Shown one piece after another: positions 46,265 to 63,575 of a DNA stretch of 64,000 nt. How positions within the stretch are numbered: the first letter of the stretch is position 1; each line of letters starts with the position of its first letter. The notes under the pieces were generated by a model, which did no database searches, was not told where the DNA came from, and worked only from the letters and a program-made list of their open reading frames with translations. The position numbers and the translations under genes are program-made. The DNA is from Streptomyces sp. SCL15-4 (GTDB taxonomy: Bacteria > Actinomycetota > Actinomycetes > Streptomycetales > Streptomycetaceae), in NCBI RefSeq assembly GCF_033366695.1, contig NZ_JAOBTQ010000001.1:1240001-1304000 (forward strand). Reading direction: 5' to 3'.

Positions 46265-47686
46265 GTGGACTGGTTCACCGCACCCGACTACTGGCTGAGC
46301 CGGCTGGTCCTCCAGCGGGCCCTGGCCGCCGTGTACCTGGTCGCGTTCCTGTCGGCGGTCCTGCAGTTCCGGGCCCTGCTGGGCGAGCGCGGCATGCTGC
46401 CGGTCCCCCGCTTCACCGCCCGGGTGCCCTGCCGGCGCGCCCCGAGCCTGTTCCAGCTGCACTACTCCGACCGTTTCTTCGCCGGCTGCGCCTGGGCGGG
46501 CTGTGCGGTGTCGGCGGCGCTGCTGGCCGGGGCCGACTCGTGGCTGCCGCTGTGGGCGGGGATCGTGCTGTGGCTGGTGCCGTGGGCGTTGTATCTGTCG
46601 ATCGTGAACGTGGGCCAGACGTGGTACGCGTTCGGCTGGGAGTCGCTGCTGCTGGAGACCGGCTTCCTGGCCGCGTTCCTCGGCAACGGCGAGGTGGCGC
46701 CGCCGGTCGTCGTGCTGTTCCTGCTGCGCTGGGTGCTGTTCCGGGTGGAGTTCGGCGCCGGGCTGATCAAGCTGCGCGGCGACGCCTGCTGGCGGAAGCT
46801 GACCTGTCTGGACTACCACCACGAGACCCAGCCGATGCCGGGCCCGCTGAGCTGGTTCTTCCACCATCTGCCGAGGCCGCTGCACCGGGTGGAGGTGGCC
46901 GCCAACCACGTCACCCAGCTGGTGGTGCCGTTCCTGCTGTTCACCCCGCAGCCCGTCGCGTCGGCCGCCGCCGCCCTGATGATCGTCACCCAGCTGTGGC
47001 TGGTGCTCTCCGGGAACTTCTCCTGGCTGAACTGGATCACCATCGTGCTGGCCCTGTCCGCGCTGCGGCTGCCGGCGGCGGCGCCGTCGGTGCCGGCGGC
47101 GCCGCCGTGGTACGAGGTGCTGGTGCTCGCGGTCGGCGCGCTGCTGCTCTTCCTGAGCCACCGCCCCGTGCTGAACATGATCTCCCGCCGCCAGGTGATG
47201 AACCGGTCCTTCGACCCGCTGCACCTGGTGAACACCTACGGCGCGTTCGGCAGCGTCAGCCGGTTCCGCTACGAGGTGGTGGTCGAGGGCACGCTGGACG
47301 ATGCCCCGCGCGCGGACTCGGACTGGCGGGAGTACGCCTTCAAGGGCAAGCCCGGCGATCCGAGGCGCTGGCCGCGCCAGTTCGCCCCGTACCATCTGCG
47401 CCTGGACTGGCTGATGTGGTTCGCCGCGCTGTCGCCGGGTTACGCGGGAGAGTGGTTCGGCGCTCTGGTGGAACGCCTGCTGGAGAACGACCGGGACACC
47501 TTGAGGCTGCTGCGCCGCTGCCCGTTCCCGCCGGACACCCCGCCCCGCTATGTGCGGGCCCGGCTGTTCCGCTACCGGTACACCAGCCGGCGGGAGCTGC
47601 GGGAGACGGGGGCGTGCTGGGAGCGGACGTACGTGCGGGAGTATCTGCCGCCGACGCGGCTGGCGGAGCCGGCTCAGAGGGCGTAG
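46265..47686 (+). CDS. Lipase maturation factor family membrane protein
   Basis: 473-aa polytopic protein (about 8 helices in the first 320 residues) with the LMF1/LMF2-type C-terminal domain: NTYGAFGSVSRFRYEVVVEGTLDD, EYAFKGKPGDPRRWPRQFAPYHLRLDWLMWFAAL and RARLFRYRYTS. In animals LMF1 helps fold lipases; bacterial members are poorly known. The GTG at 46265 has GGAAGGG about nine nt upstream. Its 3' end overlaps the convergent amidohydrolase by 13 nt. No lipase is encoded beside it. Confidence 0.9.
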   Translation: MDWFTAPDYWLSRLVLQRALAAVYLVAFLSAVLQFRALLGERGMLPVPRFTARVPCRRAPSLFQLHYSDRFFAGCAWAGCAVSAALLAGADSWLPLWAGIVLWLVPWALYLSIVNVGQTWYAFGWESLLLETGFLAAFLGNGEVAPPVVVLFLLRWVLFRVEFGAGLIKLRGDACWRKLTCLDYHHETQPMPGPLSWFFHHLPRPLHRVEVAANHVTQLVVPFLLFTPQPVASAAAALMIVTQLWLVLSGNFSWLNWITIVLALSALRLPAAAPSVPAAPPWYEVLVLAVGALLLFLSHRPVLNMISRRQVMNRSFDPLHLVNTYGAFGSVSRFRYEVVVEGTLDDAPRADSDWREYAFKGKPGDPRRWPRQFAPYHLRLDWLMWFAALSPGYAGEWFGALVERLLENDRDTLRLLRRCPFPPDTPPRYVRARLFRYRYTSRRELRETGACWERTYVREYLPPTRLAEPAQRA

Positions 47687-48513
47687 ACACGCGCCGCGGT
47701 GACCTCGAACAGTGCCGTGCGCTCGGCCTCGGCGAGGCGGGCGGTCAGCTCGCGCGCGGTGTGCAGCACCTCGGCGTAGGAGGCGGCCCGGGTGCACACC
47801 GGCCAGTCGGAGCCGTACATCAGCCGGCCGGGACCGAAGGCGTCCAGGGCGATGTCCGTGTAGGGGCGCAGGGCGTCGGCCGTCCGGGCGCCGGGGGCGG
47901 CCTCGGTGACCAGTCCGGAGAGCTTGGCGACGGTGTTGGGCAGGGCGGCGAGGGCGCGCAGGCGGGTCGCCCAGGGCTCGCGCGCGCCCGTGGCGACCGG
48001 GGGTTTGCCGAGGTGGTCCAGGACGAAGGTGAGCCCGGGCAGCAGGGCGGCGGCCCGCGCGCACGCGGGGAGCTGGTGGGGCAGCACCACGAGGTCGTGG
48101 ACCAGTCCGGCGTCGGCCACGGCGGCCAGGCCGCGCAGCACGTCGGGCCGCAGCAGCCACTCGGGGTCGGGCTCGGACTGGACCTGGTGCCGGATGCCCT
48201 TCAGCAGGGCGCCGCCGGGCAGGGCGCGCAGCCGGGCCAGCTCGTCGGCGATGTCGGGACGGGTGAGGTCCGTCCAGCCGACGACCCCGGCGACCAGGTC
48301 GTGCCCGGCGGCGAGCGCGAGCAGTTCGGGGGTCTCCTCGGGGACGGTGACGGTCTGGACGAGGACGGTGGCACCGATCCCGGCGGCCCGGGCCTCGGGT
48401 TCCAGGTCGGCGAGGAGGAAGTCGCGTCGCAACGGGGCGAGTCCGGGGCCGTGGAGCCAGTCCTGGTCGCGGACGGTCAGGTCCCAGACGTGGTGGTGGG
48501 CGTCCACGGTCAC
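47674..48513 (-). CDS. Amidohydrolase-family lactonase, probable L-fucono-1,5-lactonase
   Basis: 279-aa TIM-barrel metal-dependent hydrolase of the amidohydrolase_2 family. VDAHHHVWDL at the N-terminus is the usual metal-binding HxH; LVQTVTVPEETPELLALAAG, GIRHQVQSEPDPEWLLRPDVLRGLAAVADAGLVHDLVVLPHQL, FVLDHLGKPP and MYGSDWPVCTRAASY follow. It should open the lactone formed by the aldo/keto reductase, whose stop overlaps its GTG start by four nt (GTGA). Last gene of the minus-strand sugar operon. Assignment to fuconolactonase rests on the operon context. Confidence 0.8.
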   Translation of the reverse strand: MTVDAHHHVWDLTVRDQDWLHGPGLAPLRRDFLLADLEPEARAAGIGATVLVQTVTVPEETPELLALAAGHDLVAGVVGWTDLTRPDIADELARLRALPGGALLKGIRHQVQSEPDPEWLLRPDVLRGLAAVADAGLVHDLVVLPHQLPACARAAALLPGLTFVLDHLGKPPVATGAREPWATRLRALAALPNTVAKLSGLVTEAAPGARTADALRPYTDIALDAFGPGRLMYGSDWPVCTRAASYAEVLHTARELTARLAEAERTALFEVTAARVYAL

Positions 48514-49484
48514 GGCGACTCCTCCCGTGCCCGGGGCAGCAGGCCGCTGTCGCGCAGCTCCTGCCAGAAGGCGTCCGGCACCGGTGTGGCGAACTGATCG
48601 GCGCAGTCGTGGACTTCGGCCGCCGAGCGGGCTCCGGCCAGGACGCTCGCCACGGCCGGGTGCCCGGCCGAGAAGGCGAGCGCGGCGGCGCGCAGGGTGG
48701 TGCCGTGCCGTTCGGCCGCCGCCTTCAGCCGCAGGGCGCGGTCCAGGAGCGCGCGGGGTGCGCGGGTGTAGTCGTACGTCGCGCCGGGCGCCGGGGCCGC
48801 CAGCAGGCCGGAGTTGAAGGGGCCGCCGACGACCACCGACACTCCTCGTCGCAGCGCCTCGGGCAGCAGTTCGCCGGCCGCTTGCTGGTCGAGCAGGGTG
48901 TACCGGCCGGCGCACAGCACCACGTCCACGTCGGTGTCGCGGACGAATCGGGTGAGCATCGCGGTCTGGTTCATGCCGGCGCCGATCGCGCCCACCACCC
49001 CTTCCGCGCGCATCCGTTCCAGGGCCGGGTAGCCCTCGCGGAAGGCCTGTTCGGCGTGGTCGTCGGGGTCGTGGAGGTAGACGACGTCGACCCGGTCGAG
49101 GCCGAGGCGGTCCAGGCTCGCCTCCAGGGTGCGGCGGATTCCGTCGGCGCCGAAGTCCCACACGCGGCGGTGGGCGGCGGGGACGGCGTAGCCGTGGGCG
49201 AGGTCGTCGCCGGTGCCGTCGGCCGGCTCCAGGCGGCGGCCTGCCTTGGTGGAGAGCGTGTAGCTCGCGCGGTCGTGCGCGCGCAGGGCCGCGCCCAGGC
49301 GGCGTTCCGACAGGCCGAGGCCGTAGTGCGGGGCGGTGTCGAAGTAGCGGATGCCGCGGTCCCAGGCGGCCTCGACCGCCGCGTGCGCCTGCTCCTCGCT
49401 CACCGGTGTGTACAGGTTGCCGAGGGCGGCGGCGCCGAGGCCGAGCGGGCTGACCTGGACGCCGCTGCGGCCGAGCGCGGTCAC
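48510..49484 (-). CDS. Aldo/keto reductase, probable L-fucose (aldose) 1-dehydrogenase
   Basis: 324-aa (alpha/beta)8 NAD(P)-dependent oxidoreductase. Catalytic tetrad is visible: Asp and Tyr in RYFDTAPHYGLGLSERRLG, Lys in STKAGR, and His in VYLHDPDD. Close in type to D-threo-aldose/L-fucose dehydrogenases that oxidise the sugar to its lactone. Both ends overlap neighbours by four nt (GTGA with the SDR stop and with the lactonase start). Substrate is inferred from the neighbouring L-fuconate dehydratase. Confidence 0.83.
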   Translation of the reverse strand: MTALGRSGVQVSPLGLGAAALGNLYTPVSEEQAHAAVEAAWDRGIRYFDTAPHYGLGLSERRLGAALRAHDRASYTLSTKAGRRLEPADGTGDDLAHGYAVPAAHRRVWDFGADGIRRTLEASLDRLGLDRVDVVYLHDPDDHAEQAFREGYPALERMRAEGVVGAIGAGMNQTAMLTRFVRDTDVDVVLCAGRYTLLDQQAAGELLPEALRRGVSVVVGGPFNSGLLAAPAPGATYDYTRAPRALLDRALRLKAAAERHGTTLRAAALAFSAGHPAVASVLAGARSAAEVHDCADQFATPVPDAFWQELRDSGLLPRAREESP

Positions 49485-50239
49485 CGGTGCGCCGCCGGCC
49501 GGAGCCTGAGGCCCTGCATGCCGCCGTCGACGGCGAGCGCGGTGCCGGTGGTGGCGCCGGCCGAGGGGCTCGCCAAGTAGGCGATGGCGGCCGCGACTTC
49601 GGCGGCGGAGACGAGCCGCCCGGTGGGCTGGCGGGCCTCCAGGGCGGCGCGTTCGGCGGCCGGGTCGGGGGCCGTGTCCAACAGCCGGCCGATCCACGGG
49701 GTGTCCGCCGTACCGGGGTTGACGCAGTTGACGCGGATGCCCTCGCGGACGTGGTCGGCGGCCATGGCGAGGGTCAGGGAGTACACGGCGCCCTTGGTGG
49801 CGCTGTACAGGGCGCGCTGAGGCAGGCCCGCGGTGGCCGCGATGGAACAGGTGTTGACGATCGCGGCATGGGCGGAGCGGCGCAGGTGCGGCAGGCAGGC
49901 GCGGGCGGTGCGGACCATGCCGAGGACGTTCACGTCGAAGACGTGCCGCCACTCGGCGTCGGCGTTGTCCTCGACGGTGCCCTGGGCGCCGATGCCCGCG
50001 TTGTTGACCAGGATGTCGAGGCCGCCGAGCGCGTCGGCGGCCTCCGTCACGGCCCGGCGCACCGAGGCGTCGTCGGTGACGTCGGCGCGCAGCGCGAGCA
50101 TCGGTTCCGGCACCGGGGACGGGTCCAGGTCGAGTACGGCGACCCGGGCGCCGCGCTCGGCGAGGAGGCCGGCGGTGGCCCGGCCGATGCCGGAGGCGCC
50201 GCCGGTGACGAGGGCCCTGAGGCCGGTGAAGTCGCTCAT
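49481..50239 (-). CDS. Short-chain dehydrogenase, probable 2-keto-3-deoxy-L-fuconate dehydrogenase
   Basis: 252-aa classical SDR. Cofactor loop [15 protein letters not shown] motif ([12 protein letters not shown]), catalytic Ser in [10 protein letters not shown] and YxxxK in [10 protein letters not shown]; adjacent [13 protein letters not shown] and the C-terminal GTALAVDGG. Acidic residue at the end of beta2 (VLDLD) favours NAD. In the non-phosphorylative fucose route this enzyme oxidises 2-keto-3-deoxyfuconate. ATG at 50239 overlaps the dehydratase stop. Confidence 0.83.
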
Positions 50240-51642: not shown

Positions 51643-51716
51643 TATCAGACCACTGAGCCCGCATGACACCCTCCTGCACGGACATCTCCTCCGTATGCCC
51701 GGATTGGTCGGACCAC
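51643..51716. promoter_or_regulatory. Two FadR/GntR-type operator-like sites
   Basis: TGGTCGGACCA (51705-51715) is an 11-bp palindrome of the TGGT-N3-ACCA type. A second, degenerate site, TATCAGACCAC (51643-51653), shares the GACCAC half. The GACCAC halves lie 63 bp apart, about six helical turns. Both lie between the divergent regulator and the fuconate operon. Confidence 0.55.
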
Positions 51717-51760: not shown

Positions 51761-52471
51761 GTGGACGACGCGGCCCCGCGCAAGGGCACGGTGACCCAGC
51801 GCGCCGTCGAGGAGATCAAGGCGATGATCGCCGAGGGCCGGCTGGAACCGGGCCAGCGGCTGCCCACCGAACGGGACCTCGCCGTGCGACTGGGCATCTC
51901 GCGCAGTTCGACGCGGGAGGCGATCCGCGCGCTGACGGTCATGGGGGTGCTGGACGCGCGGCACGGCTCGGGGATCTACGTCGGCGCGCTGGAGGCCGGC
52001 GACCTGCTGGAGACCTTCGGCGTGGTCGCGGACCTGTCCCGGGGGCCGCGCCTGGTGGAACTGCTGGAGGTGCGCCGGGTCCTGGAGTCCACGGCGACCG
52101 CGCTGGCCGCCGCGCGCATCACCGAGGACCAACTGGCGGCCCTGGCAGCCCACTTGGCGGCGATGAACGCCACCGACGACCCCGAGGAGATCCTCGCCCA
52201 CGACCTCGCCTTCCACCGCGAGATCGCGTCGGCCGCGGGCAACGCGACGATGGCCGCCATCCTGGACGGCCTGTCCTCCCGCACCTTCCGCGCCCGCCTC
52301 CGGCGCGGCTACCAAGAGGAAGGCGCCCTCGCGCGCACCCGGCGCGAACACGCCGCCATCCACCGCGCCCTCACCGCCCGCGACCCGGAGGCGGCCCGCG
52401 CGGCGGCAGCGGCCCACGTGAGCGAGGTGGAGGAGTGGCTGCGGGGACGGATCGGGGGCGGTGAGCGGTGA
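51761..52471 (+). CDS. FadR-type (GntR family, FCD domain) transcriptional regulator
   Basis: 236 aa. N-terminal winged HTH ([54 protein letters not shown]), then an FCD helical domain with metal-ligand candidates ([26 protein letters not shown]). GTG at 51761 follows GAGGAG at 51751-51756. Divergent from the fuconate operon and likely its repressor. Sugar-acid effector expected. Tail-to-tail with the alpha-mannosidase gene. Confidence 0.92.
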
Positions 52472-52546: not shown

Positions 52547-55500
52547 TCAGGGACGGCCGAACCTGAGGGTGACGAGTTCGAACGGGCGCAGGCACACGGT
52601 GATCCGCTCGCCCTCGCGGATGCCGGGCCGGGCCCCGGCGAGCGGGCGTTCCAGCAGGTCGGTGGCGGTGACGTCGGTGAACGCGAAGCCCGCCGTCAGC
52701 GTCGCCCGGGCCCGGCCGCCGTGGGCCTCGTGGAAGCGGACCACCACGTCCCCGCTGCCGTCGTCGGCGAGTTTCACCGCCGTCACCACCACCGCGTCGT
52801 CGTCCACGGTGACCAGCGGGTCGACCGCGCCGGCGCCGGTCGTACGCCGCTCCGGCAGGTTGATCCGCCAGCCCTCGCGGACCGCGTCGCCGACCGTGGC
52901 GCCAAGCACCAGTGCGTGCCGGAAGCGGTGGACGCCCTGGTCGGTCTCCGGGTCCGGGAAGCGCGGGGCGCGCAGCAGGGACACCCGTACGGTGGTGGTC
53001 GTACCGCGGTCGCCGTCCGCGCGGACGGCGCGGGTCACGTCGTGGCCGTAGGTGGAGTCGTTGACGACCGCCACGCCCCAGCCGGGCTCCTCGAGGTGCA
53101 CGAAGCGGTGGTTGCAGGCCTCGAACCTGGCCGCCTCCCAGGAGGTGTTGGTGTGGGTGGGCCGGAACACGTGCCCGAACTGGGTCTCGGACGCGTACCG
53201 TTCGGCGTGCAGGTCGAGCGGGAAGGCCAGCTTCAGGAACTTCTCCGTCTCGTGCCAGTCCACCTCGGTGTCGATGACCAGCCGGCGCTCCCCGGGCGGC
53301 AGGGACAGCAGCTGGGTGACCCGGGAGGAGCCGAAGGTCCGGACGATCCGCACCGAGGCTTGGTCCTCGCCGGCCGTGACCGACTCCGCGCCGGTGAGGT
53401 CGGTGACGGTGTTGCGGTAGAAGGAGTCGACGTCCCAGGCGTCCCACATGTTCGGGAGGTCCGGGTGGAGCTGGAGGAGGTTGGCGGCGGTACCGGGGGC
53501 GATCGCCTCGCGGTCGGCGGCCGGATCGTAGGCGGAGACGACCAGGCCCCGGGCGTCCACGGTGACCCGCAAGCGGCCGTTGTCCAGCGTGAACCCGCCG
53601 TCCTCGCGGCGCGTGCGCGTGTCGGTGCCGGGCGCCTGAGGGGTGGCGGCGCCGCCCGCCGGGACGCCGTGGCGGGCGTGCGGGGCGGAGTTGAACAGCA
53701 GCGGGGCCGTGCCCTCGCCGGCCAGGGCGCGCTGGGCGGCGTCGATGACCGCGGTCAGCTCGGCGGTCAGCCGCTCGTACGTCGCCCGGGCCTCCCGGTG
53801 CACCCAGGCGATGGACGAGCCGGGCAGGATGTCGTGGAACTGGTGCAGCAGGACCGTCTTCCAGATACGGTCCAGCTCCTCGTACGGATAGGCGAACCCG
53901 GTGCGTACGGCCGCGGTGGCCGCCCAGAGTTCGGCCTCGCGCAGCAGGTGCTCGCAGTGCCGGTTGCCCTGCTTGGTCCGGGCCTGGCTGGTGAGGGTGG
54001 CGCGGTGCAGTTCGAGGTACAGCTCGCCGACCCAGACAGGCGCTTCGGCGTACTCGGCCTCGGCCCGCTCGAAGAACGCGCGCGGGGTCTCCCAGCGGAC
54101 GGTGGCCGAGCCCTCCAGGTCGCGCAGCCGGGCCGCCTTGGCGACCATCTCCCGCGTGGTGCCGCCGCCTCCGTCGCCCCAGCCGGTCGGGGCCAGGGAG
54201 TGCCGGGCCCGGCCCTTGTCCCGGAAGTTGCGTACCGCGTGGGCGATCTCGCCGCCCTTCATCGAGCAGTTGTAGGTGTCGACCGGCGGGAAGTGCGTGA
54301 AGACGCGGGTGCCGTCGATGCCCTCCCAGTGGAAGGTGTGGTGCGGGAACCTGTTGGTCTGCGACCAGGAGATCTTCTGCGTCAGCAGCCACTTGGAGCC
54401 GGCCGCCTTGATGATCTGCGGCAGACCCGCGGCGAAGCCGAAGGTGTCCGGCAGCCAGGCCTCCTCGTTCTCGACGCCGAACTCGTCGAGGAAGAACCGC
54501 TTGCCGTGCACGAACTGCCGGGCCATCGCCTCCGATCCGGGCATGTTGGTGTCCGACTCCACCCACATCCCGCCGGCCGGCACGAACCGGCCCTCCGCGA
54601 CGGCCTCCTTCACCCGGGCCCACACCTCGGGCCGGTGCTCCTTCACCCAGGCCCACTGCTGCGCCTGGGACATGGCGAAGACGAAGTCCGGCTCGTCCTC
54701 GAGCAGCGCGGTCATGTTGGACACCGTCCGGGCCACCTTGCGCACGGTCTCCCTGAGCGGCCACAGCCAGGCGGAGTCGATGTGCGCGTGCCCGACGGCG
54801 CTGAGCCGGTGCGCGGAGGGCACGGCGGGAGCCGACAGGACACCGCCGAGCTGCCGCCGGGCCCGGCCGGCGGTGGCGTTCACGTCCTGGAGGTCGACGG
54901 CGTCCAGGGCCCGGTCGACCGCGCGCAGGATGTCCCAGCGGCGCGGCGATTCCACGGGCAGCTCGGCCATCAGCTCGCCCAGCACCTCCAGGTCCATGAC
55001 CAGCTGCCACACGTTCTCGTCGAACACGGCGAGGTCCATACGGGCGAGGGTGTACTGCGGTTCGCCGCCGGCGGTGTCCTTGTCGCCGAGCGGGGTGGGC
55101 CGGAAGGGGTGGTAGTCGAGGATGACCGGGTTGGAGGCGGCCTCGATGTGCAGGCGCACCTCCTCCCCGCCCGCGACCGGCGCGCCGATCCGCACCCACT
55201 GGTTGCGCGGGTTGAGGCCCTTCACCGGGGTGCCGTCGGGCCGGTAGACCAGGCCCTCGCACTGGAAGCCGGGCATGTTCTCGTCGAAGCCCAGGTCGAG
55301 CAGGGCCTCGACGGTCCGGCCGGCCCACGCCTCGGGCACGGACCCGGTGACGCGGAACCAGCTGGTGCCCCAGGGCGCGCCCCAGCGGGCGCCCGCCTCG
55401 ATCGGCTCGGGCTCGGCGGCGAGCCCCTCGGCGACCGGCACCGGCTCGCCGGGCGCGTGCCACACCGCGACCTCGAGCGGCACGGACTCGGGGTACACGG

Positions 55501-55567
55501 CAGGGCGGATACGTTCGTCGAGCACGCGCCTGAGGCGGGCTTCCACCAGCGTGCGGTCGTCATGCAT
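52547..55567 (-). CDS. GH38 alpha-mannosidase
   Basis: 1006-aa cytosolic glycoside hydrolase family 38 enzyme, no signal peptide. N-terminal beta-rich domain, then the catalytic domain with VGHAHIDSAWLWPLRET (zinc ligands His262 and Asp264) and MWVESDTNMPGSE (probable nucleophile Asp339), followed by the HHTFHWEGIDGTRV segment and a C-terminal beta-sandwich region. It removes alpha-linked mannose from imported oligosaccharides. It is downstream of GH85 on the same strand, with a 57-nt gap containing a 13-bp tandem repeat. ATG at 55567. Confidence 0.93.
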   Translation of the reverse strand: MHDDRTLVEARLRRVLDERIRPAVYPESVPLEVAVWHAPGEPVPVAEGLAAEPEPIEAGARWGAPWGTSWFRVTGSVPEAWAGRTVEALLDLGFDENMPGFQCEGLVYRPDGTPVKGLNPRNQWVRIGAPVAGGEEVRLHIEAASNPVILDYHPFRPTPLGDKDTAGGEPQYTLARMDLAVFDENVWQLVMDLEVLGELMAELPVESPRRWDILRAVDRALDAVDLQDVNATAGRARRQLGGVLSAPAVPSAHRLSAVGHAHIDSAWLWPLRETVRKVARTVSNMTALLEDEPDFVFAMSQAQQWAWVKEHRPEVWARVKEAVAEGRFVPAGGMWVESDTNMPGSEAMARQFVHGKRFFLDEFGVENEEAWLPDTFGFAAGLPQIIKAAGSKWLLTQKISWSQTNRFPHHTFHWEGIDGTRVFTHFPPVDTYNCSMKGGEIAHAVRNFRDKGRARHSLAPTGWGDGGGGTTREMVAKAARLRDLEGSATVRWETPRAFFERAEAEYAEAPVWVGELYLELHRATLTSQARTKQGNRHCEHLLREAELWAATAAVRTGFAYPYEELDRIWKTVLLHQFHDILPGSSIAWVHREARATYERLTAELTAVIDAAQRALAGEGTAPLLFNSAPHARHGVPAGGAATPQAPGTDTRTRREDGGFTLDNGRLRVTVDARGLVVSAYDPAADREAIAPGTAANLLQLHPDLPNMWDAWDVDSFYRNTVTDLTGAESVTAGEDQASVRIVRTFGSSRVTQLLSLPPGERRLVIDTEVDWHETEKFLKLAFPLDLHAERYASETQFGHVFRPTHTNTSWEAARFEACNHRFVHLEEPGWGVAVVNDSTYGHDVTRAVRADGDRGTTTTVRVSLLRAPRFPDPETDQGVHRFRHALVLGATVGDAVREGWRINLPERRTTGAGAVDPLVTVDDDAVVVTAVKLADDGSGDVVVRFHEAHGGRARATLTAGFAFTDVTATDLLERPLAGARPGIREGERITVCLRPFELVTLRFGRP

Positions 55568-55606
55568 GCGGGACGCTCCCTGCGGGTTTCCGGGGTGTTC
55601 ACCAGG

Positions 55607-55631
55607 GGTGATTACCAGCGGTGATTACCAG
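55607..55631. repeat. 13-bp tandem repeat overlapping the GH85 stop
   Basis: GGTGATTACCAG occurs at 55607-55618 and again at 55620-55631, one 13-nt unit apart. The GH85 TAA stop lies inside the second copy. Each copy includes GGT-N4-ACC, so it could bind a regulator of the following mannosidase gene. Role unknown. Confidence 0.45.
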
Positions 55632-57877
55632 GGGTGGGTGAGGGTGACGGGGGGTGAGATGGTGTACAGCTCCCCCACGGCGCGCACTTCGAACCGTGCG
55701 GCCGGCTCGCCCGGCTCGGGCCGCAGGCCGGCGACGAACCAGGCGCGCTGACCGGTGGCGCCGAGGAAGCGGCGGGTGCCGTCGGGGAGGAGGCGGTGGA
55801 GGGTGTAGTGGCGGACGGGGCCGGGTGCGGGGTTCCAGGCGAGGCGGAGGTCGCCGCCGGTCGCGGCGGTGACGCGGGCGGCGGAGGGGGCGGCGGGGGT
55901 GGGCGGGGTGCCGGCGGGGCGGACGGCGAGGCCGCCGAGCCGCCAGCGGACGGGGCCGCCGGTGGGGGTGAGCCGGATGCCGAGGGTGTGCGCGGTGCCG
56001 GAGAGGCCGGTGAGCGGGATGGTGACGGTCTGCCAGCCGTTGACCGTGTTCACACTCGGGTGGGGGCTGTTGGGCCGGGCGGGCACCTGGGTGTGAATCG
56101 AGTTCACGTTGCTGCGGGAGTCGCCCGGTGTTGCCCGGGGTTGCGTGTCAACCGAGTTCACAGCGGTGTCGCTGCCGCGCGCGGCGACGGGTGTGTGCGC
56201 GTGAGGCGTGTTCACACGGCCCGCCGCACGGCCGGAGTTCACGCCCGCCGCCGTAGCCGCCGATTGCCCGGGGATCTCCGTGTTGACGGCGTTCACAGGC
56301 ACATACCTGTACGGCGGCGTCTCCCCCGGGCCGTCCGGTTCCGCCGTTGCCACCGCGAGTTCGACGTCCACAGGCCCAGACTCGCTCCGGTACGTCAGGT
56401 CGACAACCGTGTTCACACCGATCGGCAGCCGGGTCGCGTACAGGTCCAGGACCACCGGTTGATCGAGTTCACCCGTCACCAGCACGCTGCTCCCGCCACG
56501 CCAAGCGTCGGCGAAGTCGAAGGAGACCACCGGCCGTGCCCCGGCCGTCCGGACCACCCACCGCCGCGACGGCAGCCGGTCCTGGAGCCCGAGGTGGTTC
56601 CAGGCAGCCTCCGAGGCCACGGCGCCTTCCTCGTACCACCGCAGCCCGCGGCCCGTGTTGAACACGGTCGCGAACGGAACCGAGGAAACCGTGGACCGGT
56701 CCGCCACGGACGCCGCCAGCGCCCGCCAGGGGTCGTCCGGGTCGGGCCGCGACGGGTCCGCGGACCGCCCGGTCCAGAACCGGTCGTCGGCCGCGTGGAA
56801 GTCGCCGGGCGCGCGGCGGCCGGCGGGCAGGTGGTTGCGGGTCCACTCGGGCCGGTAGAACCCGATCGACGTGACGTGCGGCTTGCCGGCCGGCACGATC
56901 GCGTCCCAGTTCACATACGTCCCGGACCCCTGGGACTCGACGTCGACGCCGGCCCACAGCTCGTAGCGGCTGCGTCCGAGCCCGTCCGCCTTCGTACCGG
57001 ACGACGCCAGCGTGGCCGCGCTCCACCGGAAGTCCACGAACATGCCGTCGGCGGCCTCGAAGAACGCCTGGTTCCGGCTCGTCAGGGCGCCCTGCCAGCT
57101 GACCGTGCCGTTCACGGTCAGCGCGTCGTACCACGTCACCCGCTGCCCCGCGGCCGCCGCCAGCTCCTTCAGCTCCTTGACGAAGCCCAGCACGGCCGTG
57201 CCCAGGGCGGTGTTCCCGCCGCCCGTCTCGGCGTTGAGGAACCAGCCGTCGAAGCCGTACGCCGCCGCCACCGCGACGAGTCGCGCGGCGAGCGGGTGGT
57301 GGCCGGTGGCGTCCTCGCGCACCAGGTCGCGGGTCCACTGGAGTTGTCCGCCGTAGGCCGCGGGGGGCAAGAAGACGTTGCCGAGGACCGGGACGCCGTG
57401 CCGGTGGGCCGCGTCCACGACGGGCGCGTTCGGAGCGAGGATCAGGCCCTCGCCGGCCGAGCCGCCCCAGAACACCAGCTCGTCGATGTACGCCCAGTGG
57501 GTGAGGGCGTAGTAGTCGGCGGTGGCCGAGCCCTGCGAGGGGTTGCCGGAGGTCGGCCCGAAGGAGACGAGGGCCTGGACACGGGCCTGTCCGGAGCGGG
57601 CGGTGGGGTTCGCCGGGGTCGGGGTGAAGCGCGGGGCGAGGGGCACGGTCGCCGCGTTGAAGGCCAGGTCGGGGTCGGTGTCGGCGCGCCAGCTCGTCAG
57701 GCTGCGCCAGGTGATGCCGGGGCCGGGGGTGCCGGAGGGCAGCGCGTCCGGGTACCAGTAGGCGGCGTACGGCGGGGTCGCCGGCGCGGTGCGCGGGGCC
57801 GTCGCCGCCGCGGACGGCACGCGGACCGAGGCGGCGGCACCGGCGGCGATCAGGACGGTGCGTCTGGTGGGGTTCAC
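55625..57877 (-). CDS. GH85 endo-beta-N-acetylglucosaminidase with periodic insertion
   Basis: 750 aa. Tat-type N-terminus (NPTRRTVLIAAG). Catalytic TIM-barrel: YAAYWYPDALPSGTPGPGITW, YIDELVFWGGSAGEGLILAPN, GVPVLGNVFLPP, and GWFLNAETGGG giving the family Asn215-x-Glu217 catalytic pair. A beta-sandwich domain follows, then a fibronectin-like module at about 655-745. Between residues 528 and 609 there is an odd insertion in which Val-Asn recurs every 18 (once 9) residues. The enzyme cuts the chitobiose core of N-glycans, outside the cell. GTG start at 57877 has AGGAGG upstream and overlaps the GH5 stop by four nt. Confidence 0.92.
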   Translation of the reverse strand: MNPTRRTVLIAAGAAASVRVPSAAATAPRTAPATPPYAAYWYPDALPSGTPGPGITWRSLTSWRADTDPDLAFNAATVPLAPRFTPTPANPTARSGQARVQALVSFGPTSGNPSQGSATADYYALTHWAYIDELVFWGGSAGEGLILAPNAPVVDAAHRHGVPVLGNVFLPPAAYGGQLQWTRDLVREDATGHHPLAARLVAVAAAYGFDGWFLNAETGGGNTALGTAVLGFVKELKELAAAAGQRVTWYDALTVNGTVSWQGALTSRNQAFFEAADGMFVDFRWSAATLASSGTKADGLGRSRYELWAGVDVESQGSGTYVNWDAIVPAGKPHVTSIGFYRPEWTRNHLPAGRRAPGDFHAADDRFWTGRSADPSRPDPDDPWRALAASVADRSTVSSVPFATVFNTGRGLRWYEEGAVASEAAWNHLGLQDRLPSRRWVVRTAGARPVVSFDFADAWRGGSSVLVTGELDQPVVLDLYATRLPIGVNTVVDLTYRSESGPVDVELAVATAEPDGPGETPPYRYVPVNAVNTEIPGQSAATAAGVNSGRAAGRVNTPHAHTPVAARGSDTAVNSVDTQPRATPGDSRSNVNSIHTQVPARPNSPHPSVNTVNGWQTVTIPLTGLSGTAHTLGIRLTPTGGPVRWRLGGLAVRPAGTPPTPAAPSAARVTAATGGDLRLAWNPAPGPVRHYTLHRLLPDGTRRFLGATGQRAWFVAGLRPEPGEPAARFEVRAVGELYTISPPVTLTHPW
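56048..56473 (-). repeat. Periodic Val-Asn repeat array coding inside GH85
   Basis: GTTCAC (GTGAAC on the coding strand, Val-Asn) appears at 56048, 56102, 56156, 56210, 56237, 56291, 56411 and 56468. The first six are 54, 54, 54, 27 and 54 nt apart, i.e. exact multiples of 27. This encodes a degenerate 9-residue-unit array (residues 528-609), with VNT, VNS or VNA beginning each unit. Confidence 0.8.
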
Positions 57878-59130
57878 GAGCGGGTGCCTCCTTGGCGTAC
57901 GGGGCGTACCTGGCCGGGAGTGACGACTTCGGTGATGCCGCGCGCGGCGAGGTGGTCCCGGTCGCCTGCGCGGGTGTCGAGCACGGTGGCCGGGCGGGCG
58001 CCGTCGGCGACGAGCCGGAAGAAGGCGTCGTAGACGTCGCCGCCGGGCGCGCAGCGGGAGCGGTGGCCCGGCGCGGCGGGGACGACGAGGGCCGTACGGC
58101 GGGCGGCCGGGGCGCGGAGCGGGGCGCGGGCCGCGCCGGCCAGGACGCGGGCGATGTCCTTCGGCCGCCGTTCGCCGGTGAACAGGCCGAGGGAGTACTC
58201 GAGTTCGGGGAAGTCGGCGAGCGTGCGCGGGACGTCGTGGGAGCACCACCAGGTGACGCCCCACAGGTCGGGGCAGTCCAGGACGTTGCGGATCGTCGCC
58301 TCGGCGAACGCGGCGGCGTGCTCGGCGGGCACCAGGGGCGCGGGGGCGCCGACCTCCTGGAGCCAGACCGCCCGGTGCGGGTCGTCGGCCCATGCCTTGC
58401 TCAGTTCCACCAGGTAGGCGGCGTGGTGTTCGGCCGGCACGGAGGTGCGGCCGTGCCGCTGCGCGGTGCCGTTGAACACCCAGGAGTGGACGGCGGTCAT
58501 GGCGCCGAGCCGGGCGGAGTGACCGGGGGTGAAGGGCTGGTCGTCCTGGTACCAGGCGGCGTCGTAGGAGGCGTGCAGGTGGAGGCGGCCGGGAGCGCCG
58601 TCGGCGCAGGCGTCCAGCATCCGGGTGAGCCAGCGTCCGGCGTCCTCGGGTGTGACCGGGTCGGGGTCGGGGTGGGGGGCGGCGGCGAACTGGTTGACCT
58701 CGTTGCCGACGGTCATGCCGAGGAAGTGCGGCCGGTCGGCGAGGGCGGCGGCGAGGGTGCGCAGATAGGCGGCCTGGCCGTCGGTGACGTCCGGGTCGGT
58801 GAACAGGTTGCGGCGGTGCCAGGTGCGGGTCCAGGCGGGCAGGAAGTCGAAGCTGGACAGGTGGCCCTGCAGTCCGTCCACGGCGGTGTCGAGGCCGCGT
58901 TCGGCGGCGGCGTCGGCGAGGGCCACGAGCTGGTCGACGGCGCGGGGGCGGATCAGGGTGCGGTTGGGCTGGAAGTACGGCCACAGCGGGAAGACGCGGA
59001 TGTGGTCCAGGCCGAGTGCGGCGATCGCGTCGAGGTCGGCGCGTACGGCGTCGAGGTCGAAGTCGAGCCAGTGGTGGAACCATCCTTCGCTGGGCGTGTA
59101 GTTGACGCCGAAGCGCACGGCAGGAGGCAT
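57874..59130 (-). CDS. GH5-type glycoside hydrolase, probable beta-mannosidase (GH5_18-like)
   Basis: 418-aa cytosolic (alpha/beta)8 glycosidase. VRFGVNYTPSEGWFHHWLDFD at the N-terminus, HIRVFPLWPYFQPNRTLIRPRAV, the acid/base Glu144 in VGNEVNQF and the nucleophile Glu259 in VWLQEVGAP define clan GH-A. The C-terminal about 70 residues carry a helical extension. In Bifidobacterium a GH5_18 enzyme of this kind splits Man-beta-1,4-GlcNAc left after N-glycan trimming; gene order here (ABC importer, GH5, GH85, GH38) makes the same job likely. ATG at 59130 has GGAGG just 5' of it in the revcomp. Confidence 0.82.
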   Translation of the reverse strand: MPPAVRFGVNYTPSEGWFHHWLDFDLDAVRADLDAIAALGLDHIRVFPLWPYFQPNRTLIRPRAVDQLVALADAAAERGLDTAVDGLQGHLSSFDFLPAWTRTWHRRNLFTDPDVTDGQAAYLRTLAAALADRPHFLGMTVGNEVNQFAAAPHPDPDPVTPEDAGRWLTRMLDACADGAPGRLHLHASYDAAWYQDDQPFTPGHSARLGAMTAVHSWVFNGTAQRHGRTSVPAEHHAAYLVELSKAWADDPHRAVWLQEVGAPAPLVPAEHAAAFAEATIRNVLDCPDLWGVTWWCSHDVPRTLADFPELEYSLGLFTGERRPKDIARVLAGAARAPLRAPAARRTALVVPAAPGHRSRCAPGGDVYDAFFRLVADGARPATVLDTRAGDRDHLAARGITEVVTPGQVRPVRQGGTRS

Positions 59131-59165
59131 GCGGTGTCCTTGAACTCGGGGTACCCGGTGGAGGT

Positions 59166-60067
<902 letters not shown>

Positions 60068-60071
<4 letters not shown>

Positions 60072-60955
60072 GATTCCTCCTTCCGGTCGGCGCGCAGGAC
60101 GAGCAGCATCAGGGCGACGGTGACGGTGAACACGACGACGGAGAGGGCGGAGGCGTAGCCGACGCGGCCGGACAGGCCGGTGCCGGTGCGCTGGACGAGC
60201 ATGACGAGGGTGGTGTCCTCGCCGGCCGGGCCGCCGCTCGGGCCCGCCATCAGGTACACCTCGGAGAACACCTTGAAGGCGGCGACCGAGGAGAGCGCGG
60301 CGACGAGCACCATGGTGGAGCGTACGGCGGGCACGGTGACGGACAGGAAGCGGCGGACCGGGCCGGCTCCGTCGACGGCGGCGGCCTCGTGCAGTTCGCG
60401 CGGCACGTTGGCCAGTGCGGCCAGGTAGACGACCATGTAGTAGCCGAGGCCCTTCCAGACCGTGACCGCCATGGCGCTGAGCAGGAGCAGCCACTGGTCG
60501 CTGAGGAATCCGACGTGGCCGATGCCCACTGTCTCCAGTACCGAGTTGACCAGGCCGCGTTCGTCCAGCAGCCAGACCCAGATCAGGCCCACGACGACGA
60601 CGGAGGCGACGACGGGGGTGTAGAAGGCGGAGCGGAAGAAGGTGATGCCGGGGATGTTCCGGTGCACCAGCAGGGCGAGCAGCAGGGGCAGGACGACGAG
60701 TGCGGGGACGACGCCGAGGACGTAGAGGGCACTGTTGCGCAGTCCGGTCCAGAACATGTCGTCGTGGAGCAGTTCGCGGAAGTTGGCGAGTCCGACGTAG
60801 CGGCCGGGGAGCAGGGTGCGGCGGTCGGTGAGGGAGTTCGCCAGGGTGGAGAGGAAGGGGTAGAGCACGAAGGCGCCGGTGATCAGCAGTCCCGGTGCGG
60901 CGAACAGCCAGGGGCTGGTGGGGAGGTGGTGACGGACGCGGAGGGGCGTGGCCAT
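60068..60955 (-). CDS. Carbohydrate ABC transporter permease (MalF/UgpA-like)
   Basis: 295-aa, six predicted transmembrane helices. EAA loop VPRELHEAAAVDGAGPVRRFLSVTVP. Begins five nt after the binding protein stop and overlaps the second permease by four nt. Forms the channel with the MalG-like partner. Sugar specificity is set by the binding protein. Confidence 0.94.
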
Positions 60956-60960
60956 GGCGG

Positions 60961-62244
60961 TCAGCCCTGCTGGAGGAGCCGGTCGGCGGCCTTGACAGCG
61001 TTGTCCAGGGCTTCCTTGGGGCTCTGCTTGCCCTGGAGCGCCTTGGCGACCTCGTTGCGTAGCGCGGTCTTCATCTGCTCGCTGAACAGCACCGGTGTGT
61101 AATTGACGGCGGTCTTCAGGGATTTGGCGGCGGCGACGCGTACCCGGGTGGCGTCGGTGCCGTCCTGCCTGGTGAAGTACGGGTCGTCGAGGGAGCCGGC
61201 GGTGCTGGGGAAGATGGCGACCCGTTTGGCGAAGGACATCTGGTTCCGCGCGTCGGTGACGAAGTGGGCGAAGGCGACCGCGGCCGGGGTGTGCCGGGTG
61301 CGGGAGTTGACCATGACGCCCATCACGTACATGTTGGCGTGTCCGGTGCTGGTGATCTGGTCGGTGATGCCGATGTTCCGGTACAGGCCCGGGGCGTTCT
61401 TCCGGAAGTTGTCCAGGTCCAGGGCGCTGCCTGGGTTCATGGCGACGGCGCCGGTGAGGAACTTCTTGCCGGCGGACTCCCCGGTGGCGGTGAGTGCCTG
61501 CGGGTCGAGGGCCCCGGCGTCGTACAACTGCTTGTATCTGGTGAGGAGTTCGACGCCCTTGGGGTCGTTGAAGGCGAATGCGGTGCCCTGTTCGTTCATG
61601 AGCGGAACGCCGTAGCGGCCGAAGTCCTCGATGGTGGGGACGTTGGCGAGGGTGGCGACCTTGCCGCCGGTCTTCCGGGCCATCCTCAGTGCGTCGGCGA
61701 AGAGTTCGCCGTAGGTCTTCGGGGGCTGCCCGGGGTCGAGTCCGGCCTTTTCGAAGAGGGCCTTGTTGTAGAAGAGCGGGCCGGTGTTGAGGTACCAGGG
61801 GAAGGCGTAGGTGCCGGTCAGGCCGGGGACCTTGTGGCCGGCCCAGGCGCCGGGCAGGTACTCCTCGCGATAGCGGGCGGCGGCCTTGTCGAGGTCCAGC
61901 GCGAGACCCGCCTTGGCGAGCGGGGCGAGGAGGTCCGGGGAGACGTTGACGACGTCGGGCAGGGTGCCGCCGCCCGCGTCGGCGCCGATCTTGTCGGCGT
62001 AGCCCTCGGCCGGCTGGTCGATCCACTTGACGTGGGTGTCCGGGTACTTCTCCTCGAAGCCGGCGATCAGGTCCTCGAAGTAGTCCTTGAAGTTGGCGCG
62101 CAGGTTCCAGGTCTGGAAGGTGATGTCGCCCTCGACCTTGCCGGAGGCGTCGCTCGTGCCTCCGTCGCCGCCCGGGCCGCAGGCGCTCAGCGGCAGGACG
62201 AGGGCGACGGCGAGGGCGGTGAGGGCTCTGCGGGAGAGGGGCAC
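60961..62244 (-). CDS. Sugar ABC transporter substrate-binding lipoprotein
   Basis: 427-aa family 1 solute-binding protein. Signal peptide with lipobox LPLSAC. Mature chain: ITFQTWNLRANFKDYFEDLIAGFEEKYPDTHVKWIDQPAEGY, LPDVVNVSPDLLAPLAKAG, GTYAFPWYLNTGPLFYNKALFEKAG and GVMVNSRTRHTPAAVAFAHFVTD, in normal order. The GTG at 62244 (VPLSRRAL) has a GGGAG eight nt upstream; a GTG two codons earlier is too close to it. First gene of the N-glycan block; expected to bind the GH85 product oligosaccharide. Confidence 0.92.
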   Translation of the reverse strand: MPLSRRALTALAVALVLPLSACGPGGDGGTSDASGKVEGDITFQTWNLRANFKDYFEDLIAGFEEKYPDTHVKWIDQPAEGYADKIGADAGGGTLPDVVNVSPDLLAPLAKAGLALDLDKAAARYREEYLPGAWAGHKVPGLTGTYAFPWYLNTGPLFYNKALFEKAGLDPGQPPKTYGELFADALRMARKTGGKVATLANVPTIEDFGRYGVPLMNEQGTAFAFNDPKGVELLTRYKQLYDAGALDPQALTATGESAGKKFLTGAVAMNPGSALDLDNFRKNAPGLYRNIGITDQITSTGHANMYVMGVMVNSRTRHTPAAVAFAHFVTDARNQMSFAKRVAIFPSTAGSLDDPYFTRQDGTDATRVRVAAAKSLKTAVNYTPVLFSEQMKTALRNEVAKALQGKQSPKEALDNAVKAADRLLQQG

Positions 62245-62333
62245 GGACACGGCTCCCTTGCGGTGTCGGGGCTGTGGGTGGCGCGAAAGACCTTGCCCGG
62301 GCCGTTCGGAGAAAGTCAATGGATTCGTCGCCG

Positions 62334-62436
62334 CTAAAGCATTCCGTCCTTCATCAGTGCAGGTGGGCGCCTACTGGCCGAGAACTTGCGGTAGTTGGCT
62401 AATGCGCTTTAGGGTCTTGACACTCAAGCGCTTTAG
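62334..62436. promoter_or_regulatory. LacI-type operator cluster and TTGACA -35 element
   Basis: CTAATGCGCTTTAG (62399-62412) and CTCAAGCGCTTTAG (62423-62436) are close copies of a palindrome CTAAAGCGCTTTAG, centres 24 bp apart. A half-site, CTAAAGC, is at 62334-62340. TTGACA at 62417-62422 lies between the two operators. They sit between the divergent LacI gene and the ABC/glycosidase operon, so LacI probably represses both. Confidence 0.7.
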
Positions 62437-62462
62437 TAGTTCCCTGCCGAAGGGAAGGAAAC

Positions 62463-63575
62463 GTGCCGACCAGACGGTCCCCCGCCCGCCGGCCCACGAT
62501 GAAGGACATCGCCCGGCGCGCCGGAGTCTCCGAGAGTGCCGTGTCCTTCGCGCTCAACGACCGCCCCGGTGTCTCCGAGGCCACCCGGGCCCGGGTCCGC
62601 CGGGTCGCCGAGCAGCTGGGCTGGCGGCCGAGTACGGCGGCCCGCGCGCTGTCCGGGGAGGGCGCGGCCACGGTCGGCTTCGTCCTGGCCCGCCCCGCGG
62701 CCACGCTGGGCGTCGACTCCTTCTTCCTCCAGCTCGTCTCCGGCATCCAGAAGGTGCTGGCCGAGCGCCACTTGGGCCTGCTGTTCCAGGTGGCGGAGGA
62801 CGTGGCCGACGAGTGCGCGGTGTACCGGCGCTGGTGGGCCGAGCACCGGGTGGACGGCGTCCTGGTCGTCGATCCGCGCGCCGACGATCCGCGGCCCGGC
62901 CTGCTGGACGAACTCTCGCTGCCCGCCGTGGTGATCGGCGGCGCCCCGGACGAGCGGCACCCCGGGCTGTCCACGGTCTGGGCGGACGACGCGGGCGCGA
63001 TGGCCGCGGTGGTGGGCGAGTTGACGACGCTGGGGCATCGCCGGATCGTGCACATCGCCGGTCTGCCGGGCCTCGCGCACACCCAGCGCCGCATCCGCAC
63101 GCTGCGCGCCGAGGCGGAGCGGCGTGGGCTCGCCGAGGTGGAGTCGGTGACGACCGACTACTCCGACACCGAGGCCGCCGCGGTCACCCGCAGGGTCCTG
63201 CGCGGCCCCGCTCCCCCGACGGCCCTGGTCTACGACACCGACGTGATGGCCGTCGCCGGCCTCGCCGCCGCGGCCGAGCTGGGGTTCTCGGTGCCGGCCG
63301 GGCTGTCGGTGGTGGCGTGGGAGGACTCGGCCCTGTGCCGCATGGTCACGCCGCGGCTGTCGGCGCTGTCCCGGGACAGCGTGGAGTTCGGGTCGACGGC
63401 GGCGCGGGAGCTGCTGGAGCTGCTGGACGGCGGCCCGGCCCGGACGGTGCGGGTGCCGGTCCCCCGGCTGATCGAACGGCACAGCACGGGCCCGGCACGC
63501 ACGGCCGGCGCCGGCGACCGCGGGTGCGAGCACGGTCCGGACGAGGGCACGGACGGCGGCGCGTCACGGGGTTGA
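62463..63575 (+). CDS. LacI family transcriptional regulator
   Basis: 370 aa. N-terminal HTH (MKDIARRAGVSESAVSFALNDRPGVSEATRARVRRVAEQLGWRPSTAARALSG; the hinge helix follows), then a sugar-binding periplasmic-protein-like core with VGFVLARPAATLGVDSFFLQLVSGIQKVLAERHLGLLFQ and DTDVMAVAGLAAAAELGFSVPAGLSVVAWEDS. GTG at 62463 with GAAGGGAAGG upstream. Divergent from the binding-protein operon and next to matching operators, so it should regulate N-glycan utilisation in response to the imported sugar. Confidence 0.94.
   Translation: MPTRRSPARRPTMKDIARRAGVSESAVSFALNDRPGVSEATRARVRRVAEQLGWRPSTAARALSGEGAATVGFVLARPAATLGVDSFFLQLVSGIQKVLAERHLGLLFQVAEDVADECAVYRRWWAEHRVDGVLVVDPRADDPRPGLLDELSLPAVVIGGAPDERHPGLSTVWADDAGAMAAVVGELTTLGHRRIVHIAGLPGLAHTQRRIRTLRAEAERRGLAEVESVTTDYSDTEAAAVTRRVLRGPAPPTALVYDTDVMAVAGLAAAAELGFSVPAGLSVVAWEDSALCRMVTPRLSALSRDSVEFGSTAARELLELLDGGPARTVRVPVPRLIERHSTGPARTAGAGDRGCEHGPDEGTDGGASRG

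What the first reader, a model, noticed from the sequence alone, without database searches (positions are those of the whole stretch)
52547..63575. N-glycan utilisation locus: GH85 + GH38 + GH5 + ABC importer + LacI
A Tat-exported GH85 can release glycans, the lipoprotein and permeases import them, and cytosolic GH38 and GH5_18-like enzymes can trim Man-alpha and the core Man-beta-1,4-GlcNAc. The design parallels bifidobacterial N-glycan loci but in a soil actinomycete, and it abuts an L-fucose pathway that would process core fucose. The joint fucose plus N-glycan arrangement may be an undescribed system.
Basis: partly seen in the sequence, partly recalled or inferred. Interest (0 to 1): 0.75.

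Follow-up and report, generated by a model that had tools for sequence, protein, structure and literature searches.

The report
Soil bacterium's N-glycan eating operon
This stretch holds an ordinary, already described kind of Streptomyces gene set for cutting sugar trees off glycoproteins, importing them and digesting them; the fucose-digesting genes next door look like a neighbouring but separately controlled unit.

Summary
Two palindromes between LacI and the SBP gene are the only exact copies of that motif in the 8.42-Mb genome. The nearest solved GH5_18 is ScGH5_18 (PDB 7lr7). A 2021 paper titled as showing that gut and soil actinobacteria share N-glycan core genes covers this kind of locus (text not held; title seen). 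The L-fucose operon beside it is real, and the adjacency holds in 25 of 30 sampled genomes carrying both genes. The joint system is not supported here: the fucose operon has its own GntR regulator and palindrome, lacks the importer and mutarotase that relatives have, and has no fucosidase nearby. On an rpoB-rpoC tree the modules are not gained or lost together (2.5 pairs for, 2.3 against; low power), whereas GH85 and GH5_18 are (15.1 against 1.0). GH85 also leaves core fucose on the protein. Many relatives carry an alpha-1,3/4-fucosidase-like GH29 and a lacto-N-biosidase-like GH20 in the same island, mostly with the fucose importer, hinting at a Lewis-type antenna module.

The parts
62499..63575 (+). 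LacI-family regulator of the N-glycan operon (open frame from 62463)
   Evidence: Pfam LacI 2e-15, Peripla_BP_3 5e-31; gene call
62399..62412 (.). operator-like palindrome 1, CTAATGCGCTTTAG
   Evidence: kept in SBP-LacI gaps of relatives; exact motif at only two places in the genome, both here, with 14 further places at two mismatches not examined
62423..62436 (.). operator-like palindrome 2, CTCAAGCGCTTTAG
60961..62244 (-). sugar-binding lipoprotein (SBP_bac_1) of the importer
   Evidence: Pfam 1.2e-44; lipobox LSAC, lipobox pattern in 78 of 80 relatives
60068..60955 (-). ABC importer permease 1
   Evidence: Pfam BPD_transp_1, gene call
59166..60071 (-). ABC importer permease 2
   Evidence: Pfam BPD_transp_1, gene call
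57874..59118 (-). GH5_18, Man-beta-1,4-GlcNAc-type beta-mannosidase, no export signal seen by eye
   Evidence: PDB 7lr7 ScGH5_18 E 7e-206; further down BlGH5_18, BlMan5B and 6gvb
55625..57877 (-). GH85 endo-beta-N-acetylglucosaminidase, Tat-type N-terminus, motif FLNAE
   Evidence: Pfam 9e-80; best PDB 2vtf/3fha 5e-104, then Endo-D 2w91 9e-64
52547..55567 (-). GH38 alpha-mannosidase, no export signal seen by eye
   Evidence: Pfam 4e-95; best PDB 7ufs, 7ufr, 7ufu, 7uft, then Ams1
51761..52471 (+). GntR/FCD regulator of the neighbouring fucose operon (separate unit)
   Evidence: Pfam GntR 4e-19, FCD 3e-25 on the longer frame; gene call
51705..51715 (.). palindrome TGGTCGGACCA in the FucD-GntR gap (candidate GntR site)
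   Evidence: motif TGGTCNGACCA exact in 17 of 19 relatives' gaps printed, one mismatch in the other two (G011, G122); five places in the window's genome
50236..51576 (-). L-fuconate dehydratase (FucD)
   Evidence: best PDB 1yey L-fuconate dehydratase, 692 bits, E 2e-207
49481..50239 (-). SDR, probable 2-keto-3-deoxy-L-fuconate dehydrogenase
   Evidence: Pfam adh_short_C2 3e-55; role inferred from context
48510..49484 (-). aldo-keto reductase, probable L-fucose dehydrogenase
   Evidence: Pfam Aldo_ket_red 2.5e-44; role inferred
47674..48513 (-). L-fucono-1,5-lactonase-like amidohydrolase
   Evidence: NCBIfam FuconLaconase 231 bits, under its cut-off of 400

Best explanation
It is a Streptomyces N-glycan core utilisation operon. 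Inferred working: the Tat-exported GH85 cuts the chitobiose core and frees mannose-rich glycans ending in one GlcNAc. The lipoprotein and two permeases import them, powered by an ATPase encoded elsewhere. Cytosolic GH38 strips alpha-mannose and GH5_18 splits the last Man-beta-1,4-GlcNAc. The divergent LacI protein represses the operon at two sites in the shared promoter region until a glycan fragment relieves it. The L-fucose oxidation operon beside it is a separate unit with its own GntR regulator, and in this genome it is a reduced version without importer and mutarotase. Shown: genes, motifs, conserved palindromes, conservation and inheritance pattern. Inferred: substrate, transport, repression, direction of change in the fucose operon.
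For: Family matches and gene order. The core stays together: SBP, both permeases and GH5_18 in 80 of 80 named loci; all six core genes present in 65 of 66 full-length loci, 58 of 66 with GH85 too. GH85 and GH5_18 are gained and lost together on the rpoB-rpoC tree: 15.1 pairs the same way against 1.0 of 20, median p 0.0005 (GH5_18 >=64%); 11.8 against 1.8 of 17, median p 0.013 (>=75%). Operator pair kept in the SBP-LacI gap and nowhere else exactly in the genome. Fucose operon: a different palindrome, importer and mutarotase missing, no correlation with the N-glycan operon. Partial fucose operons beside an intact N-glycan operon in relatives, for example S. achromogenes (L145) and NRRL S-1022 (L147).
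Against: No substrate, binding or expression data. The binding protein's best solved match is an unspecified substrate-binding protein at 116 bits (6wpm), so its sugar is unknown. GH85 was not found in 12 of 80 named loci, some of them cut by contig ends, so some operons may live on glycans freed by other means. Five relatives (G104, G049, G063, G122, G141) have a diverged operator form. The tree test for fucose has few informative pairs, so a loose link cannot be excluded.
Confidence: 0.85

Rival explanations
1. Joint fucose plus N-glycan system: the two operons form one functional island in which fucose from the same glycans feeds the neighbouring pathway.
For: Adjacency within 20 kb on one strand in 25 of the 30 (of 150 sampled) genomes with GH5_18 >=75% and FucD >=80%, the window's included; in two of the other five (G020, G111) GH85 stands next to the fucose operon. 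On the tree GH85 and FucD lean the same way (3.8 against 1.7 and 4.0 against 1.1 pairs, median p 0.6 and 0.4). Of 66 full-length named loci, 32 of 43 with the fucose importer have a GH29 or the GH20 in reach, 1 of 23 without.
Against: Different palindromes, neither found at the other operon. No correlated gain or loss of GH5_18 and FucD: 2.5 against 2.3 of 17 pairs (FucD >=82%) and 1.4 against 3.2 (>=79%); 2.6 against 2.4 (>=81%) and, with GH5_18 >=64%, 1.0 against 2.6. The block also keeps LMF1 and amidase genes of no evident link, so adjacency can be mere descent. In this genome no fucosidase nearby and no close importer.
Confidence: 0.12
2. The operon serves another mannoside, such as fungal mannan fragments, and GH85 has an accessory role.
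For: GH38 enzymes and sugar importers act on many mannosides (family knowledge); GH85 was not found in 12 of 80 named loci, some on short contigs.
Against: GH5_18 is close to enzymes that papers name for Man-beta-1,4-GlcNAc, and GH85 co-varies with it.
Confidence: 0.08
3. A chance cluster of unrelated sugar genes.
For: None beyond the fact that sugar genes are many in such genomes (general knowledge).
Against: All six core genes together in 65 of 66 full-length loci and co-inheritance of GH85 with GH5_18.
Confidence: 0.02

Closest known systems
N-glycan degradation genes shared by gut and soil actinobacteria (Higgins et al. 2021, ACS Chem Biol 16:701, doi 10.1021/acschembio.0c00995; not held; title seen in two reference lists; content recalled)
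   Same: GH5_18 closest to ScGH5_18 of PDB 7lr7/7lr8, which I recall as that paper's Streptomyces cattleya enzyme; same parts list as far as I recall
   Different: No difference known to me in the core; the published gene order was not checked
Bifidobacterium longum oligomannose N-glycan gene set (GH85, GH38, GH125, GH5_18 and uptake genes mnaABC: passages of PMC11758915; three GH38 and a GH125 in one operon: passages of PMC10154615)
   Same: GH85, GH38, GH5_18 and a glycan importer
   Different: Here one GH38 and no GH125 in the operon
Cutibacterium acnes GH38/GH5_18/GH20 locus (passages of PMC6160142)
   Same: GH38 and GH5_18 together, cytosolic trimming of the core proposed
   Different: There GH20 belongs to the triad and GH85 is not named among its genes in the passages read; here GH85 is in the operon
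L-fuconate dehydratase of PDB 1yey and its pathway (Xanthomonas origin recalled)
   Same: FucD match over the full length, lactonase-like and dehydrogenase-type partners
   Different: In the window no importer and no mutarotase beside it

Membership tests
Actinobacterial N-glycan core utilisation locus | GH5_18 beta-mannosidase with both catalytic Glu motifs | tested here: met
   motifs in 80 of 80 relatives
Actinobacterial N-glycan core utilisation locus | GH38 alpha-mannosidase without export signal | tested here: met
   absence of signal read by eye
Actinobacterial N-glycan core utilisation locus | exported endo-beta-N-acetylglucosaminidase | tested here: met
   GH85 match and Tat-type N-terminus; export itself not tested
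Actinobacterial N-glycan core utilisation locus | binding protein plus two permeases and a local regulator | tested here: met
Actinobacterial N-glycan core utilisation locus | uptake of and induction by N-glycans | not testable with these tools
   needs binding and expression assays
L-fucose oxidation operon | L-fuconate dehydratase | tested here: met
   692 bits to 1yey
L-fucose oxidation operon | L-fucono-lactonase | tested here: inconclusive
   231 bits, curated cut-off 400
L-fucose oxidation operon | fucose importer and mutarotase in the operon, as in relatives | tested here: not met
   absent in the window, present in 18 loci of relatives; no close importer ATPase elsewhere
Joint fucose plus N-glycan system | shared regulation | tested here: not met
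   by motif only: different palindromes, neither found at the other operon; expression not tested
Joint fucose plus N-glycan system | co-inheritance of the two operons | tested here: inconclusive
   no correlation, but few informative pairs; control pair correlated
Joint fucose plus N-glycan system | fucosidase in the locus | tested here: not met
   window genome's single GH29 match is about 6.95 Mb away; GH29 genes present in many relatives' loci

The most novel reading that the evidence does not exclude
In many Streptomyces the island (N-glycan operon, fucose operon with importer, exported alpha-1,3/4-fucosidase-like GH29 and lacto-N-biosidase-like GH20) dismantles plant complex N-glycans. 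The GH29 removes the alpha-1,4-fucose of the Lewis a antenna and the GH20 then lifts off Gal-beta-1,3-GlcNAc as one disaccharide. Fucose goes to the GntR operon and the trimmed core to GH85/GH38/GH5_18. The window's strain would be a reduced descendant that kept the core part. This would give soil lacto-N-biosidases a natural substrate.
Probability: 0.22. Interest if true: 0.55.

Novelty: new member of a known kind. Interest (0 to 1): 0.27.

Why it matters
The N-glycan operon is common in the genus: GH5_18 in 80 of 150 sampled genomes, 72 of them with a copy at 64% identity or more and 8 with only a diverged copy, and GH85 in 59 of 150. The case also shows that conserved adjacency in a Streptomyces chromosome need not mean a joint system. 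If the wider island does take plant Lewis a antennae apart, it would supply a substrate for lacto-N-biosidase-type GH20 enzymes of soil bacteria; a 2023 review says that no GH18 or GH85 active on plant N-glycans had been described (PMC10154615, passages).

Tried and rejected
Considered and rejected: a missing GH5 (the GH5_18 frame has no Pfam hit, but the PDB sequence search names it). Control of the fucose operon by LacI: no operator found there. Control of the GH29/GH20 genes by GntR: the palindrome, at up to one mismatch, was found between genes only at the GntR gap, apart from one one-mismatch site in G049 between two unassigned genes; in the window's genome its five places are not near the GH29 gene. 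Core-fucose processing: rejected on GH85 chemistry (family knowledge).

Weak points of the counts. The tree used 95 of 150 genomes: 43 of 44 with GH5_18 >=75% and 61 with FucD >=79%, but 49 of 72 with GH5_18 >=64% and only some with neither gene. G001 was left out because its rpoB match is a fragment. It is a FastTree tree, 64 of 92 inner branches starred. Trait lists were typed by hand; the partial GH85 hit of G030 and the partial FucD hit of G119 were dropped. One search used the 15 GH29 rows and 63 FucD rows that I copied, not the full tables. The importer/glycosidase Fisher test (p 4e-8) is not corrected for descent. Roles of SDR and AKR are inferred. The 14 further two-mismatch LacI-type sites and the four other GntR palindromes in the genome were not examined.

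Led nowhere: ten paper searches, of which some were aimed at fucose, fucosidase or lacto-N-biosidase with Streptomyces. I saw listings, and passages of the papers cited; one search listed 10 of 17,288. None that I saw describes the combined island; the library lacks most subscription papers, so this is no proof of absence.
Full report
What is there. The window is base 1240001-1304000 of contig 1 of an 8.42-Mb genome; the window has 73.7% G+C. A codon-usage gene caller gives, on the minus strand in order of transcription: binding protein 60961-62244, permeases 60068-60955 and 59166-60071, GH5_18 57874-59118, GH85 55625-57877, GH38 52547-55567. LacI (62499-63575) diverges from the binding-protein gene. 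The GH5_18 is not seen by Pfam; its best PDB matches are ScGH5_18 (688 bits), an unspecified glycosyl hydrolase (9y4v), BlGH5_18, BlMan5B and 6gvb, an exo-beta-1,4-mannosidase. Catalytic motifs are kept. No ATPase gene is present; three MalK-like hits lie elsewhere, two over the cut-off.

Regulation. The gap between LacI and the binding-protein gene holds two 14-base palindromes (62399-62412, 62423-62436). The pair is kept in relatives, including a more distant one (G021), and a similar pair stands before GH5_18 in G074; G104, G049, G063, G122 and G141 carry a diverged form. In the whole genome the motif is matched without mismatch only at these two places; 14 further places have two mismatches, and the reversed-pattern control has more hits than the pattern (61 and 52 against 10 and 11). 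It was not found at the fucose operon or the GH29/GH20 genes in the loci scanned.

The fucose neighbour. Beyond GH38 lies a GntR gene (51761-52471, plus strand, so its 3' end faces that of GH38), then L-fuconate dehydratase, an SDR, an aldo-keto reductase and an L-fuconolactonase-like gene (47674-51576). The dehydratase assignment is strong (692 bits to 1yey); the lactonase is under its curated cut-off. In 18 loci of relatives the operon also has a ribose-type ABC importer (three genes) and an rhaM-family mutarotase; the window and G024 lack these. No close copy of the importer ATPase exists elsewhere in the window's genome (best 39%), and its single GH29 match is at 8.25 Mb against 1.29 Mb for the operon. 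FucD relatives at other places in other genomes lie within several kb of GH29 genes, for example G140, G146 and G049 (compare), which supports L-fucose as the substrate.

Is it one system? In 150 sampled genomes of the genus, GH5_18 is found in 80, GH85 in 59, FucD relatives at E <= 1e-100 in 97. Of 30 genomes, the window's included, with GH5_18 at 75% or more and FucD at 80% or more, 25 have them within 20 kb on one strand. The other five have them on different contigs; in two of these (G020, G111) GH85 stands beside the fucose operon without the other N-glycan genes. But the same block also keeps LMF1 on one side and an amidase on the other in many genomes, so adjacency is what plain descent would give. 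G016 and G080 have the N-glycan operon without the fucose operon. In the stretches read, G007 and G009 have the fucose operon without the N-glycan operon, G022 keeps a 94-residue piece that reads like a GH38 C-terminus, and G131 only GH38. On a tree of rpoB-rpoC from 95 of the 150 genomes, pairs that differ in GH5_18 show FucD going the same way in 2.5 and the other way in 2.3 of 17 pairs (FucD >=82%), 2.6 against 2.4 (>=81%), 1.4 against 3.2 (>=79%); with GH5_18 >=64%, 1.0 against 2.6. The control, GH5_18 against GH85, gives 15.1 against 1.0 (>=64%, median p 0.0005) and 11.8 against 1.8 (>=75%, p 0.013). GH85 against FucD leans the same way without significance (3.8 against 1.7). Few pairs are informative, so this argues against a tight link and cannot exclude a loose one.

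The third module. On the far side of LacI many relatives carry a Tat-type GH29 with an F5/8 domain closest to 4zrx and to alpha-1,3/4-fucosidase 3mo4, a GH20 closest to lacto-N-biosidases (8hvb, E 6e-173) and a second GH29. The window's genome has no match to the first GH29 or the GH20 at E <= 1e-80. All 26 genomes in the tree with the GH20 at 72% or more also carry FucD at 79% or more (21 of 26 at 82% or more); pairs 4.0 against 0.0, median p 0.125. The GH20 against the N-glycan operon gives nearly as much, 3.6 against 0.4, median p 0.25, so the tree does not tell which of the two it belongs with. Among 66 full-length named loci, all of which carry GH5_18 by selection, 32 of 43 with the fucose importer have one of these glycosidases in reach and 1 of 23 without; this is not corrected for descent. 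Plant N-glycans bear Lewis a antennae (PMC10154615, passages), hence the novel case.

Partial fucose operons. Several relatives keep only parts of the fucose operon in reach beside the N-glycan operon: L145 (S. achromogenes) GntR, FucD, SDR and AKR without importer, L147 and L171 only AKR, L177 GntR, SDR and AKR, L180 only SDR, L148 and L217 only GntR. I read this as loss; the direction is inferred.

Known or new. GH5_18 genes for N-glycans in gut and soil actinobacteria are in print (Higgins et al. 2021; title seen, content recalled, text not held). B. longum and C. acnes counterparts are described in papers of which I read passages. The window's locus is a further member. None of the ten paper searches showed me a description of the fucose neighbour or the GH29-GH20 pair with it, within a library that lacks most subscription journals.

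Verdict. Observation confirmed; N-glycan function likely and of a known kind; joint fucose system not supported for this genome; a plausible, untested antenna module in its relatives.

Noticed in passing
L031:3810-5354 and L031:5379-7040 (relative G063): GH29 close to alpha-1,3/4-fucosidases beside a GH20 close to lacto-N-biosidases, next to the N-glycan operon; 27 of 150 sampled genomes have the GH20 at 72% identity or more.
   Followed up: partly
L044 (G022), GH5_18-like at 50% identity: A second, diverged kind of locus: GH5_18-like, two permeases, binding protein and GH38-like (46-58% identity to the window's), with a GH85 match about 600 bases away. GH5_18 relatives at 51-59% occur in 21 of 150 sampled genomes.
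   Followed up: no
L142:10971-11252 (G022) and L144 (G131): A 94-residue piece that reads by eye like a GH38 C-terminus, and a GH38 without the rest of the operon: probable traces of loss of the N-glycan operon beside a kept fucose operon.
   Followed up: partly
L036 and L038 (G020, G111): GH85 sits beside the fucose operon while GH38, GH5_18, importer and LacI are on another contig (L037, L039).
   Followed up: no
window 46265-47686: Lipase maturation factor family gene (LMF1), a frequent neighbour of the block in relatives, of no evident link to sugars.
   Followed up: no
window 15836-18166: Large open frame whose N-terminus reads by eye like a UvrA-type ATPase; not searched.
   Followed up: no
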